The translations under genes were made by a program, and so were the position numbers. A stretch of 64,000 nt of DNA from the NCBI RefSeq assembly GCF_901933205.1, contig NC_044596.1, positions 2,606,001-2,670,000 of the forward strand. Reading direction: 5' to 3'. Under the pieces are notes generated by a model. The model had not been told where the DNA came from, did no database searches, and saw nothing but the letters and a program-made list of their open reading frames with translations. Below, piece by piece: positions 2,357 to 41,745 of this stretch. This stretch comes from Camarhynchus parvulus (lineage: Eukaryota > Chordata > Aves > Passeriformes > Thraupidae). Each line of letters begins with the position of its first letter. Position 1 is the first letter of the stretch.

Positions 2357-2700
2357 CTCCCCACGAGGAGCTGCACGTCCCCGTGGTGTCACCCAGGGCA
2401 CTGCCAGGAGGAGCTGCACGTCCCCATGGTGTCACCCACGGCACTGCCACGAGGAGCTGCACGTCCCCGTGGTGTCACCCAGGGCACTGCCACGAGGAGC
2501 TGCACGTCCCCATAGTGTCACCCACGGCACTGCCACGAGGAGCTGCACGTCCCCGTGGTGTCACCCAGGGGCTGCACGTCCCCGTGGTGTCACCCAGGGC
2601 ACTGCCAGGAGGAGCTGCACATCCCCATGGTGTCACCCACGGCACTGCCAGGAGGAGCTGCACATCCCCATGGTGTCACCCAGAGCACTGCCAGGCTCCC
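2357..2700. repeat. Minisatellite, 43-bp unit, about 8 copies
   Basis: The motif GAGGAGCTGCACGTCCCC recurs with spacing of exactly 43 bases (GAGCTGC starts at 2368, 2411, 2454, 2497, 2540). One shortened unit lies near 2571, and further copies run to about 2700. Copies differ by a few substitutions (CCCGTGG/CCCATGG, CCCAGGG/CCCACGG). Because 43 is not a multiple of three and the unit lacks stops, it opens long artificial frames on both strands; these are not genes. The unit is GC-rich with CpGs, unlike the flanks. Confidence 0.93.
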
Positions 2701-2869
2701 AGCGCTCTGGAGATGAGGGAGAGCCCCCAGAAAATTTGAGCAGTGGCACCATCCAAACTCCTTTTTATGGCAATGACTGCTCCAGTCTTATCTTCTTTAT
2801 GTTTGGGAAGTGCAGGGCTTGTGCATTGCACAAGGAAAGAGGAATAGTGTTGATCTGCAGGTTAGAAGC

Positions 2870-3222
2870 AGTAATTGGTTTAGGGATCAGAACCCCAGTC
2901 AGTAACTGGTTTGGGGATGAGAACCCCAATTAGTAACTGGTTTGGGATCAGAAGCCCAGTCAGTAACTGGTTTGGGGATGAGAACCCCAGTCTGTAACTG
3001 GTTTGGGGATCAGAACCCCAATTAGTAACTGGTTTGGGATCAGAAGCCCAGTCTGTAACTGGTTTGGGGATGAGAAGCCCAGTCTGTAACTGGTTTGGGG
3101 ATCAGAACCCCAATTAGTAACTGGTTTGGGGATCAGAACCCCAATTAGTAACTGGTTTGGGGATGAGAAGCCCAGTCTGTAACTGGTTTGGGATCAGAAG
3201 CCCAGTCCGTAACTGGTTTGGT
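2870..3222. repeat. Minisatellite, 30-31-bp unit, about 11-12 copies
   Basis: The unit is a GTAACTGGTTTGGGGAT core followed by CAGAACCCC or GAGAAGCCC and a short linker. Starts at 2871, 2902, 2933 and 2963 show spacing of 31, 31 and 30. The one-base difference comes from GGGG versus GGG in the core. Variants alternate (CAATTA, CAGTCA and CAGTCT linkers), suggesting higher-order mixing of two or three subtypes. Confidence 0.93.
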
Positions 3223-13979: not shown

Positions 13980-14157
13980 CGCTAGGACCCAGAGGGAGCC
14001 GGCTCGCCGTGAATCAGAGCGGAGCCCCGAGCGCTGAATGAGGCTGCCACGGCAGCGGCGATGTGAATGGCTCACGGGGGCCGAGGACAGGGGTGTCACA
14101 GCAGCCTGGACAGCCTGGACAGCCTCGGGGAGCCTCGGGCAGCGCTGCGGCTCCCAG
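13980..14157 (+). other. Candidate NGF non-coding exon 1 (3' end by splice donor)
   Basis: Within the CpG-rich region, CCCAG followed by GTGAGC (exon end 14157, GT at 14158-14159) is a near-perfect U2 splice donor. The GC-rich sequence before it could be a 5' UTR exon spliced to the acceptor at 40883, a 26.7-kb intron. The 5' limit given here is a guess, because no transcription start can be read from the sequence. It contains in-frame stops and no conserved peptide, consistent with a UTR exon. Confidence 0.35.
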
Positions 14158-14245
14158 GTGAGCGAGCGGGGCGGGAGCGGCACCGGAGCGCGGCCCCGGA
14201 GCGCGGCCAGAGCCGGCTCCGCGCTCCGGAGGAGGCTCGGGAGCC

Positions 14246-19200: not shown

Positions 19201-19257
19201 TCTCTCATGGACATGACTGCCATATTTCACAGTGGCATTTCCTGGAGGAAACAGAGT

Positions 19258-19908
19258 TGGTGACAAAGCACCAAGGGAGATGGTGACAGTGCACCAAGGG
19301 AGGTGGTGACAATACACCAAGGGAGAAGGTGACAGTGCACCAAGGGAGGTGGTGACAATGCGCTAAGGGAGAAGGTGACCAAGGGAGGTGGTGACAAAGC
19401 ACCAAGGGAGAAGGTGACAATGCACTAAGGGAGAAGGTGACAGTGCACCAAGGGAGGTGGTGACAAAGCACCAAGGGAGATGGTGACAGTGCACCAAGGG
19501 AGGTGGTGACAGTGCACCAAGGGAGAAGGTGACAATGCACCAAGGGAGATGGTGACAATGCACCAAGGGAGAAGGTGACAGTGCACCAAGGGAGGTGGTG
19601 ACAATGCACTAAGGGAGAAGGTGACAATGCACCAAGGGAGATGGTGACAGTGCACCAAGGGAGATGGTGACAATGCACCAAGGGAGGTGGTGACAGTGCA
19701 CCAAGGGAGATGGTGACAATGCACCAAGGGAGAAGGTGACAATGCACTAAGGGAGAAGGTGACACACAAGAGGTGGTGACAGTGCACCAAGGGAGATGGT
19801 GACAATGCACCAAGGGAGATGGTGACAATGCACCAAGGGAGAAGGTGACAGTGCACTAAGGGAGAAGGTGACAATGTACCAAGGGAGAAGGTGACAGTTC
19901 ACCAAGGT
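19258..19908. repeat. Minisatellite, 23-bp unit, about 28 copies
   Basis: The unit is GGTGACAATGCACCAAGGGAGAA or close variants (AGTG/AATG; GAA/GAT/GGT before GGTGAC; CACC/CACT). ACCAAGGG occurrences at 19516 and 19539 show the 23-base period. Two units are shortened (near 19375 and 19760). The plus strand is purine-rich. Because the unit is 23 bases long with no stop in any minus-strand frame, it yields three overlapping artificial minus-strand frames that translate to repeats of PWCTVTISLGALSPSPLVHCH type. These are not proteins. Confidence 0.96.
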
Positions 19909-37300: not shown

Positions 37301-37993
37301 GACCCACAGCACACACAGCTGGCAGGAGCAGCAGGGCCCCATGGCAAGGTGCAGCCCAGCCCGGCTCAGCTCTGGATGAAATAAGGACCTTGCTGGGGGA
37401 GCAGTTCTTTGTGCAGTCCACTCCTCACAGGTAAGCCACACTCTGCCACAGCAGCCTGGAGTCCCCCAGGGCCAGGGTAACAGTTCATGACACAGGCCCA
37501 GCACAGAAGTGGGGTTAGCACAGGTGAGGTAACTTTGGCATCACAATGCCTGTGATAACCTTTGTGTTGTCATCTTATTGCAAAGCTCCCATACCTTCTC
37601 AGTGATTTCTCATGGGCAGCTCCTTGCAACACTGACTCCTTCTTCTTCACAGCACAGCCAACAAACTCCAACTCTTTTGTAGCACTCTTCTTCTTACTGG
37701 ACACAGCTGTGGCCTGTTAAGGGCAGGTCTGTTCTTAATCTTTGGTGATTAGTACAGCTGCAACTCCTCAGGTGTGAGATTACCTTCCGCACTATCTTTA
37801 TTTTCTTACATTCCATCCCTCCACACCTTTGTGCCCAGGGTTCCCATCACACACCCACGGACCCCCAGCACTGGAACTGGCAGCTGCACATCCCCTGCAA
37901 GTCCAGGTGGCTGCATGAGGCATCTCCTGTGAGCATCTCCAGAAAGCACCATCAGAGGCTCTAATAACTAATTATGGGACAAGTTTTGGAGAG

Positions 37994-38086: not shown

Positions 38087-40585
38087 CCCCAAAATAGCCT
38101 GTAAAATACCTCTGTGTGCTAGCAAAAGAGTTCACAACCCTCACAGCCCAGGGCACATCTATTCTTTAATGTTAACTTCTCTTGCCTGTGTTGTCATCAA
38201 GTTGAGTTCACTTTTTTAATGTTTCTATTCTCCACTAACTCACTAATTGCTAAAAAATGTTCCACTTTGAATCCTGAGAAGTTATTATGTATCCCAAATA
38301 CATTCTGTCTATGTTTGGGCCACACTCCACAGAACGATTTAGCACAAGGAGAGGAAATGCAAGGCAATTAAAGAAAAAAGGCATGCAAGGTCTTTCTGCT
38401 TTTGTGTTAATGGCCTTAAATCAAAAATTTCAGCACAGGCAACACAAAAACCCAGAGAAGGGTGGTAAATGTAGCTGCATTTTAGAGCAGCAAATCTTGT
38501 ATAGCACAAAACCAGAACCAGCTCTCTGCTGACATTGCAGCATCTCTTTCCTATAGAAGGAAATAATAAAAAAAGGCTTTATGCATAAACACAATACACT
38601 GAGGCTGCTATTGGCATGGCGAAATTGTGCCTGGATTTTATTCTGCAAACCTTTTCCATTAACATTTCTGTCGGGAAAGCTGACTCTTGAGAGATGTAAT
38701 GAACCATCTGACTTTATTTTGCTTGTGGAACAAGGGGTTACTCTCTGGACGGTGCACAGCCAAGCTCTGAGCTACACCCAGCTCTGTTTCCTTATACAGA
38801 GGATGACGAGTGCTCCAGCACGAGCAGCACGTGGGAAAGCAGCAACCCTCAGCCTTGCTTTAAACAAATTAAAGTGCCTTTGGAACAGTGAGGATTTGCT
38901 CTGTGACAAACATTTGACTCTCCTCGTCATCATTTTGTCTCCAATGCCTCCAGCCCAGCAGTTGCACAGACAAGTGCTCACACGGCTTTTGGCCTTTCTC
39001 TTCCTTCCTCCCCTCCAGGGCTCTGCTTCTCCTCCCTCCTCAGTCACTGCTTCACTTGGTGTCTCCCTGAATGTTTGCTCAGCCCTGCACAAACCTTGCT
39101 GTTTATGTCATTTCAGCTCCTGTCTGAGATAAGACACACGAGATCCTGTGGGACATCTTAGGGTTGTTCTGCATTTTCCACAGGATTATGCTCTGGCAGA
39201 GCATCCTGGTCAAGTCCTTTAGTGCTCCTTGGGATTCTAATCTGACAAAGCTCCACAGAGGGGGGGAACTGCAACCATAATTGACCCACACCCAGCAAAA
39301 ACACAGAGAAATTCTGGGAAATCACAGTGGAACTGCAGAGCCTGATTCCTCTGGTACAAAACCCTGTTTGTCCAGTGGCTTTGGGGCTCCCTGCCTGCTG
39401 GCCAGCCACGGCAGAGCTCGGGGCCAGCTGAGACATGTCAGGAAAACAAGGCAAAGAGACGGGGAGGAGCCTCACTTGGGCTTTTCTGTTTATACCCTGT
39501 CTCTGCTTATTAAGTCTTTACAGAGGAAATACAATGTCTGCCCTTCACTGCAATTCCAGAGCATTTTTGAATGTCTCTCATTCCCAACATGTGGCTGAAT
39601 TAGTCAGCACATGGTAGTTGCCCAACGAGGTATTGCTGCTGCTGCTCTTCCTGCATGAAATGGATCTTAGCAAAGGTTTAGACATTTGGCTTGCATTTTT
39701 CCACACCCAAACAGATGTGCCTGTCCTCTGGATTGAAGGAGGACCAGCACTGGCACTGCATCTGCTCGGCAGGGACTTTTGGGGAGTTCTTGCTCGTGGC
39801 ATTCTGAAAAAAAACCAGGTGTTTCCCTGTCCAGAATTCCCAGTACTTTGGCCACAATGGCTGTAGCTGTGCTGTATCTAAGCAGAGGTAGTTTGGTTTC
39901 CACAGTGCTCCCATAATTGCCCTTGAATGTGGAAAAATCCCATCTGCCCTTGTGACACAGATACCTGAGCTCATCAAGGAAGGAGCCTGGGCTTTATCTG
40001 CCCTAACTCAGTGATGTGGTGTGTCCTGAAAGGGCAGCTGGGAGAGCTGGCAGCTGCTGGAGGCTGCTGAGCCAGCCTGCAGCAGGGTCTTGCCCCGTGG
40101 CAGGTGAGTGTGGCTGCTGAGGGTGTGATAATGGCATGAAGTACTGGCTTGGTGGCCCCCACTGTAGCCCCAAGGACGCCTCTGCAGACAAATTTAGGGA
40201 ATGGACAGCTGTTCTAGCCAAGGGACTGCTTCTGCTTTCACTCCTGTGCAGCCAAGAGACCGGCCCCGGCCAAAAAGGTTGCTGCAAAACTCACTAGAGA
40301 TCTGACTCCTGGGAACATGCTGTCACCATATGGTCTCCACATTAATAACACCAAACAAGTGCTTCATAAACAGTGCTCTAACGACAAATACCAGAGGAAT
40401 TAATAATAATCTTGCTATTATTTTCTAATGTTCTCGCTTTATTAAGAACACTGATGCTGTCTGAATGAGCTCTTCCGGAAGAACAACATCTGGCACTCAC
40501 ATGAATACCTGATGAAATCTGTATGATCCTGGGTATCTGATAAATTTATGGCCAGAACAGCAGCAGTTTGTGCCCTCCTGCCTCA

Positions 40586-40918
40586 CAGTAACAATGCCCT
40601 TCTCTCTCATTCTAGGTCAGAATGTAATGCCCATGCTGTTCTACACTCTGCAGTAACAGTGCCCTTCTGTCTCCTGTTCTAGGTCAGAGTGTAATGACCA
40701 TGTGCTGTTCTACACTCTGCAGTAACAGTGTCCTTCTCTCTTTTTCTAGGTTAGAATGTAATGCCCATGCTGTTCTACACTCTGACTGCAGTAACAGTGC
40801 CCTTCTCTCCTGTTCTAGGTCATACTATAATGCCCATGCTGTTCTACACTCTACAGTAACAGTGCCTTTCTGTCTCGTTCTAGGTCATAACGTAATGCCC
40901 ATGCTGTTCTACACTCTG
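40586..40918 (+). repeat. Five tandem copies of the NGF 3' splice site and start codon
   Basis: Units: 40586-40650 (65 bp), 40651-40719 (69), 40720-40788 (69), 40789-40853 (65), and 40854 onward into the gene. Each has, in order, CAGTAAC (branch-point-like TAAC), a pyrimidine tract, TCTAG, a short GTCA...GTA leader, ATG and the codons of MPMLFYTL or a variant. AG acceptors end at 40615, 40682, 40749, 40818 and 40883; ATGs start at 40627, 40694, 40761, 40830 and 40895. The copies differ by substitutions and small indels, so this is not a simple assembly echo. Unit 2 has an extra TG after its second ATG and ACC for CCC. Only the fifth copy continues as NGF. Frames from units 1, 3 and 4 stop within the array; unit 2 is in frame with NGF. 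Confidence 0.95.
40854..40883 (+). promoter_or_regulatory. NGF coding-exon 3' splice site
   Basis: A TAAC with its branch A at about 40859 lies 24 bases before the AG ending at 40883, with the tract CCTTTCTGTCTCGTTCTAG between. The exon then begins GTCATAACGTAATG, the same context that precedes the start codon in other vertebrate NGF genes. It is the last of five similar acceptors, so actual use must be tested with transcripts. Confidence 0.8.
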
Positions 40919-41611
40919 ACTGTAGCTTTTTTGATCGGCACACAGGCAGCTCCCAAGTCAGAGGACAATGCCCCACTGGAGTTTCCTGCAGAACATTCCC
41001 TGCTCAGCACCCAGAGCGACCGACACCGCATTGCCCAGGAGGCTCTGCAGACATCCCACGGCCACACCACATGGAGCCTTGGCAGCAGAGAAGCTCTAAA
41101 CATCACTGTGGACCCCAAAATCTTTCGGAAGCGGCGTTTCCGCTCTCCCCGGGTGCTGTTCAGCACGGAGCCCCCGCCGCTGGCCGGGCAGGGCCGGAAT
41201 TTGGGATTTCTCAGCGGCACGGGGGCTCTCAACAGGACTGCGAGGAGCAGGAGGAGCACGCACCCTGTGCTGCACCGCGGGGAGTTCTCGGTGTGCGACA
41301 GCGTCAGCATGTGGGTCGGGGACAAAACCACAGCCACCGACATCAAGGGCAAGGAGGTGACGGTGCTGGGCGAGGTCAACATCAACAACAATGTCTTTAA
41401 GCAGTACTTTTTCGAGACCAAGTGCAGGGACCCCAAGCCGGTGTCGGGCGGGTGCCGCGGCATCGACGCCAAGCACTGGAACTCGTACTGCACCACCACC
41501 CACACCTTCGTCAAGGCCCTGACCATGGAGGGCAAGCAGGCGGCCTGGAGGTTCATCCGCATCGACACCGCCTGCGTCTGCGTGCTCAGCAGGAAGGCAG
41601 CCAGGCCCTGA
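40895..41611 (+). CDS. NGF: Nerve growth factor (beta-NGF) precursor, complete
   Basis: This encodes the secreted neurotrophin that dimerises and binds TrkA (NTRK1) and p75NTR (NGFR) to support sensory and sympathetic neurons. The precursor is 238 residues. Residues 1-18 form a signal peptide (hydrophobic, ending GTQA). The pro-region (19-120) has N-glycosylation sites at N69 (NIT) and N113 (NRT), a basic cluster RKRR at 78-81, and the furin site RSRR at 117-120. Mature NGF (121-238, genomic 41255-41608) is 118 residues, starting [11 protein letters not shown]. The six knot cysteines C134, C177, C187, C199, C227 and C229 are all present, as are tryptophans W140, W195 and W218. The mature part lacks an N-glycosylation site (NNNV). 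The whole protein lies in one exon, as is usual for NGF. I chose the ATG at 40895 by homology of the signal peptide; M3 at 40901 is an alternative. The frame is open upstream to a second in-frame ATG at 40694. No frameshift or missing key residue is seen. Confidence 0.98.
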
Positions 41612-41745
41612 GCCCACGCCCTCCAACCCCCTACCTCAGCCTGTAAATTATTTTAAGTTATAAAGGACTGCATGGTATATTTATAGTTTATACAGTACAG
41701 AAAGAACCTCATTATTTATTAAACTCTTTTGGAAACCTTTGGTGT
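41612..41745 (+). other. NGF 3' UTR with poly(A) signal
   Basis: After the TGA the sequence holds GTAAATTATTTTAAGTTATA and GGACTGCATGGTATATTTATAG, a block I recognise as conserved in vertebrate NGF 3' UTRs. ATTAAA at 41718-41723 is the likely poly(A) signal. A GT-rich element (TTTGGTGTTTTGTAAG) follows at about 41738-41753, placing cleavage near 41740. The block also has AU-rich elements (ATTTA at 41699-41720) that could affect mRNA stability. The 3' UTR would be only about 130 bases; longer forms are possible. Confidence 0.75.

What the first reader, a model, noticed from the sequence alone, without database searches (positions are those of the whole stretch)
40586..40918. Five-copy tandem array of a complete 3' splice site plus NGF start codon
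The boundary between the intron and the NGF coding exon has been multiplied into five head-to-tail units of 65-69 bp. Each unit holds a TAAC branch-point-like site, a pyrimidine tract, TCTAG, a short leader, ATG and the first codons of the NGF signal peptide. The repeated piece is a whole functional module, not random DNA. Copies 1-4 lie just upstream of the real one, so the spliceosome meets five alternative acceptors in 270 bases. The scattered differences between copies argue against an assembly error. I know of no description of such an array at NGF.
Basis: partly seen in the sequence, partly recalled or inferred. Interest (0 to 1): 0.9.

Follow-up and report, generated by a model that had tools for sequence, protein, structure and literature searches.

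The report
Five-fold repeated NGF splice site
In a bird genome (most likely a songbird's), the junction where the last intron meets the NGF coding exon, start codon included, is present as five diverged copies in a row; this is predicted to give the splicing machinery five alternative landing sites and would likely change how much NGF is made.

Summary
Window 40586-40922 holds five head-to-tail units of 65-69 nt spanning the intron/coding-exon boundary of a bird NGF gene. Each has TAAC, a pyrimidine tract, TTCTAG|GT, an 11-nt leader and an ATG. Unit 5 belongs to the intact NGF exon. The locus is single in its 1.05-Gb assembly, and 50 shuffles gave nothing like it. The copies differ at 13 of 64 aligned columns plus small indels, so they are not duplicated reads.

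Actual splicing is untested: no RNA data were available.

The parts
40586..40650 (+). unit 1 (65 nt): TAAC, pyrimidine tract, acceptor AG ending 40615, ATG 40627
40651..40719 (+). unit 2 (69 nt): acceptor AG ending 40682, ATG 40694; two 2-nt insertions relative to the others; the only upstream ATG in frame with NGF (67-codon extension, 305 aa in all)
40720..40788 (+). unit 3 (69 nt): acceptor AG ending 40749, ATG 40761 (32-codon ORF); highest acceptor score; shares the ACTG tail with unit 5
40789..40853 (+). unit 4 (65 nt): acceptor AG ending 40818, ATG 40830 (9-codon ORF)
40854..40922 (+). unit 5, the native boundary: acceptor AG ending 40883, ATG 40895 of NGF
40895..41614 (+). NGF coding sequence (238 aa, stop TGA 41609-41611 by the ORF list; PF00243 at residues 127-235)
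14038..14157 (+). candidate upstream coding exon: 40 codons from an ATG, ending CAG before a GTGAGC donor; weakly similar to the N-terminus of long NGF forms of other birds
37357..37430 (+). candidate second upstream exon (part of it), ending CAG before a GTAAGC donor; similar to the N-terminus of the swift (Apus) NGF prediction

Best explanation
A 65-69-nt segment spanning the last intron/coding-exon boundary of NGF stands in five diverged head-to-tail copies, which likely arose by minisatellite-type slippage or unequal exchange, and each copy is predicted to work as an alternative 3' splice site in front of the same coding exon. Shown: the five copies, their motifs, the reading frames, the single locus. 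Inferred: transcripts from the upstream exon(s) join any of the five acceptors. Joining unit 5 gives the ordinary NGF message. Joining units 1, 3 or 4 adds 65 to 268 nt of leader with short upstream ORFs (9 or 32 codons, and start-stop ATGTAA in units 1 and 3), which would lower NGF translation. Joining unit 2 puts an in-frame AUG 67 codons upstream, which would give a 305-aa precursor with the normal signal peptide buried inside. The array would thus act as a splice-site lottery that tunes NGF output down, tolerated because unit 5 stays intact. The upstream reading frame that makes the long NGF precursor in other birds would be closed in all five units by the one-nt-shorter leader, ending at TAATG.
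For: Five intact acceptor modules at 40615-40883, TAAC 24-26 nt before each AG. All five AGs lie in the top 1% of the 4924 AGs of the window by a recalled weight matrix; unit 5 scores 10.7, units 1 and 4 11.6, unit 2 12.2, unit 3 14.9, so nothing in the motif favours unit 5. ORFs from each acceptor. Upstream exon candidates with good donors (10.5 and 11.2). Exon-1 frame ends in TAA overlapping the unit ATG in 5 of 5 units. Leaders are 11 nt in 5 of 5 units against four codons (V-x-x-V) before the M in 7 of 7 long-form proteins fetched. Only 1 of 18 sampled arrays has an acceptor-like site per copy. Origin: arrays of this kind cover several per cent of this chromosome sample; units 3 and 5 share the ACTG tail that units 1, 2 and 4 lack.
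Against: No RNA evidence for use of any acceptor. The weight matrix is recalled and unspecific: in the same intron 39018 scores 15.8, above all five units, and 39183, 39043 and 37652 score above unit 5. A protein search with the array's own translation gave no hit at E<=0.01 among 126 candidates, and none of the 29 NGF relatives fetched out of 120 listed (386 found) carries an array-like N-terminus. Invariance of the seven core splice columns is not significant (P 0.07, or 0.12 within the intron part), so selection on the upstream acceptors is not shown.
Confidence: 0.55

Rival explanations
1. Inert minisatellite: the array expanded by chance; unit 5 (or the exon behind it) alone is used and the upstream copies are spliced out as intron without effect.
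For: Arrays are dense on this chromosome: 64 arrays of period >=20 and >=3 copies in 264 kb; 17 of period 40-120 with >=4 copies. No protein prediction found with an array-encoded N-terminus. Variable columns are plentiful in the leader (5 of 11).
Against: All four upstream copies keep TAAC, TTCTAG|GT and the ATG; they score as well as or better than the native site. The first acceptors transcribed would normally be expected to compete (inference). The 23 coding-derived columns vary at only 1 position against 12 of 41 in the rest (Fisher p 0.022, segments chosen after seeing the data).
Confidence: 0.28
2. Self-correcting splice ratchet: because each unit is AG|GT, a message joined to an upstream unit regenerates a 5' splice site (CAG|GTCAGA) and is spliced again to a later unit, ending at unit 5, so every first choice converges on the same NGF mRNA.
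For: AG|GT in 5 of 5 units; after exon CAG the donor score is 7.1 for units 1-3 (97.7th percentile of the window's GTs) but 3.8 for units 4 and 5, so the chain would run down at the native site. Spacings of 65-268 nt are compatible with short introns (inference). Recursive splicing in mouse brain is restricted to AGGT (PMC8797253, Results part 1 read).
Against: Score 7.1 is well below the two real donors (10.5, 11.2), with an unfavourable base at +3. Recursive splicing is reported as rare (20 sites in the abstract) and in long introns, and the exon junction complex represses re-splicing at regenerated sites (PMC8184009, passages). Unit 4 lacks the good donor.
Confidence: 0.12
3. Assembly artefact: copy number inflated by mis-assembly of one boundary.
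For: Raw reads could not be seen; copy number in the individual is unverified.
Against: Copies differ pairwise at 4 to 8 of 64 columns and by indels; such divergence is not made by duplicating one sequence, so more than one copy must exist. The array lies once in a 6.8-Mb contig.
Confidence: 0.04

Closest known systems
Intron gain by tandem duplication of an intron-exon boundary, potato RdRp gene (PMC4974935; passages seen)
   Same: A stretch with branch site, pyrimidine tract, 3' splice site and the start of the exon was duplicated head to tail, supplying a second complete acceptor.
   Different: Two copies there against five here; there a new intron is spliced, helped by an activated GTAAG donor; here the piece includes a start codon and use is untested.
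[quoted passage not shown] ATP2A1; fission yeast 24-bp arrays), as described in PMC4974935 (passages)
   Same: Repeated AG|GT in tandem, so that a GT of one copy and an AG of another could bound an intron; multi-copy arrays are reported in fission yeast.
   Different: In the model the duplicated piece is purely exonic; here each copy brings its own branch site and pyrimidine tract.
Recursive splice sites (ratchet points) in vertebrate introns (PMC8797253; abstract and Results part 1)
   Same: Acceptor directly followed by GT (AG|GT).
   Different: Known ones lie singly in long introns; here five lie within 268 nt at the end of the intron, and the regenerated donor is only moderate.
Alternative NGF precursors, long and short (mouse and bird predictions)
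   Same: Choice of N-terminal exon decides between a 241-aa and a longer precursor; unit 2 would add 67 codons, the mouse-type long form (307 aa) adds 66.
   Different: There the extra residues come from an upstream exon; here they would come from the array, and the upstream-exon frame is closed. The similar length is probably coincidence.

Membership tests
Minisatellite / tandem repeat | Head-to-tail copies of a unit of tens of bp | tested here: met
   TRF period 69, 5.0 copies, score 461; 50 shuffles maximum 61
Minisatellite / tandem repeat | Copy-number variation between individuals | not testable with these tools
   one assembly, no reads, no other individual
Tandem alternative 3' splice sites | Several complete acceptor motifs before one exon | tested here: met
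   5 of 5 units: TAAC, pyrimidine tract, TAG; top 1% of window AGs
Tandem alternative 3' splice sites | More than one acceptor used in mRNA | not testable with these tools
   no RNA data; protein predictions gave no support
Intron gain by tandem duplication | Duplicated segment supplies the splice signals | tested here: met
Intron gain by tandem duplication | A new intron is spliced between copies | not testable with these tools
   no RNA data
Recursive splice site | AG|GT juxtaposition | tested here: met
   5 of 5 units TAG|GT
Recursive splice site | Strong regenerated 5' splice site | tested here: inconclusive
   7.1 in units 1-3, 3.8 in units 4-5, real donors 10.5 and 11.2, recalled matrix
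NGF gene | NGF domain and prepro start | tested here: met
   PF00243 E 2.5e-54; NGF chains of the PDB to E 7.1e-95; 96% to Chloropsis NGF

The most novel reading that the evidence does not exclude
The array is a self-correcting splice ratchet: five AG|GT acceptors in series catch the spliceosome wherever it lands and pass the message on, copy by copy, to the native start of NGF, with leakage at unit 2 making an extended precursor; copy number sets NGF output and is a heritable dial.
Probability: 0.1. Interest if true: 0.85.

Novelty: new variant of a known kind. Interest (0 to 1): 0.58.

Why it matters
If the upstream copies are used, one gene has a repeat whose copy number would directly set how many competing acceptors and start codons precede an essential growth factor: a natural dose series for how the spliceosome chooses among near-identical acceptors, and a possible source of heritable variation in NGF level. 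If they are not used, the spliceosome ignores four equal or better-scoring acceptors that it meets first, which would be as instructive.

Tried and rejected
Relatives' DNA: no bird genome other than the window's own is held; a degenerate array pattern had 0 matches in viral contigs, as expected. Search for array-encoded N-termini in predicted proteins: none at E<=0.01 among 126 candidates. A canary prediction (P0092) that lacks the NGF start and begins with sequence matching window 38803-39060 was considered as evidence of trouble at the array, but is more likely a faulty gene model. Codon before the start (H, Q, P or R in different passerines) was considered as a trace of exchange between units; the site varies too freely to say. 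Exchange between units: 2 of 3 pairs of informative columns fail the four-gamete test, but the columns depend on where unit 2's 2-nt gap is placed (four placements tie), so this is weak. Selection on the core splice columns: P 0.07 or 0.12, not shown. Age: mean difference 0.146 in the 41 non-coding columns would mean some tens of millions of years at recalled passerine rates; not relied on. No Rfam family in the window at gathering score. In one search the exon-2 donor was scored one base out of register (-17.3); one search gives the right value, 11.2. PMC6639004 (passages) held nothing usable.

Full report
The array is real. Window 40586-40922 reads as five head-to-tail units starting at 40586, 40651, 40720, 40789 and 40854 (alignment). 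TRF gives period 69, 5.0 copies, score 461; 50 dinucleotide shuffles of the 64-kb window gave a best score of 61 and no period of 40 or more. Each unit contains CAGTAACA, a pyrimidine tract, TTCTAG|GT, an 11-nt leader and ATG; TAAC lies 24 nt before the AG (26 in unit 2). The array has one match in the 1.05-Gb assembly to which the window belongs, on a 6.8-Mb contig; that search scores only the best candidates and skips very common words.

What follows unit 5 is NGF: PF00243 at E 2.5e-54, NGF chains in the PDB, and 386 protein relatives at E<=1e-5, of which the best 120 were listed, led by passerine NGF at 94-96% identity. The bird is therefore most likely an oscine passerine; its species is not known.

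The copies are old enough to differ. With unit 2's two 2-nt insertions gapped, 13 of 64 columns vary: 7 of 30 in the intron-derived part, 5 of 11 in the leader, 1 of 23 in the coding-derived part. The contrast between the last and the rest has Fisher p 0.022, but the segments were chosen with the data in view. The seven columns of TAAC and TAG do not vary, which is not significant (P 0.07, or 0.12 within the intron part). Units 3 and 5 share an ACTG tail that units 1, 2 and 4 lack, so a 69-nt unit is likely the older form. Divergence between copies argues against an assembly duplicate, though the exact count in the individual needs reads.

Base rate. In 264 kb of the same chromosome (20 sampled 10-kb stretches plus the window; 2359 N) there are 64 arrays of period >=20 with >=3 copies and 17 of period 40-120 with >=4 copies. 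Expansion of a stretch that happens to span a splice site is thus not astonishing as an event. As a control, acceptor-like sites (recalled matrix at or above the score of unit 5, with TNAY 18-42 nt upstream) were counted in 18 such arrays (17 after merging): only the NGF array has one per copy.

Acceptors. By the recalled matrix all five AGs are in the top 1% of 4924 AGs in the window; unit 5 is the lowest (10.7) and unit 3 the highest (14.9). The matrix is unspecific: an AG at 39018 in the same intron scores 15.8, and three others score above unit 5. So the motif does not single out the native site, but it cannot show which sites are used.

Upstream exons. Tblastn with the N-termini of long NGF predictions of other birds finds 14038-14163 (gull: 51% over 35 aa, E 2.5e-4; manakin 42% over 50, E 0.003) and 37357-37410 (swift: 70% over 20, E 2.3e-4). 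Both end in CAG before good donors, GTGAGC at 14158 (score 10.5) and GTAAGC at 37431 (11.2). In the seven long or extended NGF proteins fetched (P0005, P0006, P0007, P0014, P0016, P0022, P0072) four codons V-x-x-V stand between the place where their N-termini diverge and the M, i.e. a 12-nt leader. All five units here have 11 nt. Joined to the 40-codon frame of exon 1, every unit closes after three more codons at a TAA that overlaps the unit's ATG (TAATG). The long precursor thus appears lost in this bird and replaced by an upstream ORF that ends on the start codon.

Consequences by acceptor (sequence fact): from unit 5 the first array ATG is NGF's own, 238 aa. Unit 4 adds a 9-codon ORF; unit 3 adds ATGTAA, a 32-codon and the 9-codon ORF; unit 2 starts at 40694 in frame with NGF, 305 aa in all; unit 1 adds ATGTAA and a 9-codon ORF before 40694. 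That 201 nt of unit 2-5 sequence stay open has a chance of about 6% in base-shuffled sequence, so it is not evidence of coding. No predicted protein with such an N-terminus was found (126 candidates, none at E<=0.01; none among 29 of the 120 listed relatives fetched).

Mechanism. I favour competing alternative acceptors whose upstream use would add upstream ORFs and lower NGF output, with unit 5 kept intact. An inert array is the main rival. The boldest reading uses the AG|GT in every unit: after joining to CAG, units 1-3 regenerate a moderate donor (7.1) and units 4-5 a poor one (3.8), so mis-joined messages could be re-spliced onward. Recursive splicing in mouse brain is confined to AGGT but rare (PMC8797253, abstract and Results part 1), and the exon junction complex represses re-splicing (PMC8184009, passages).

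Known relatives. Tandem duplication of an intron-exon boundary creating an extra acceptor is known from a potato gene, and the AGGT duplication model and multi-copy fission-yeast cases are described in the same paper (PMC4974935, passages). Ten searches of the open-access library listed no paper that by title or abstract describes such an array at NGF; subscription papers and preprints are mostly not held. I rate it a new variant of a known kind.

Noticed in passing
window 2361-3221: Two neighbouring minisatellites (43-bp unit, about 5 copies; 31-bp unit, 11.5 copies with 92- and 123-bp higher-order periods).
   Followed up: no
window 19254-19907: 23-bp unit repeated 29 times, GAGATGGTGACAATGCACCAAGG.
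   Followed up: no
window 38803-39060: A canary NGF prediction (P0092) starts with sequence 88% identical to this stretch over 86 aa and lacks the normal NGF start; the strongest acceptor-like AG listed for this intron (39018) lies inside it. Faulty model or an unannotated exon.
   Followed up: partly
window 14038-14157: Candidate first coding exon of the long NGF form, diverged and eight residues shorter than the manakin's in the alignment, now out of frame with NGF.
   Followed up: partly
L008 209-1543 and L021 839-1577: Long minisatellites of 14-15 copies on the same chromosome, part of a high array density there.
   Followed up: no
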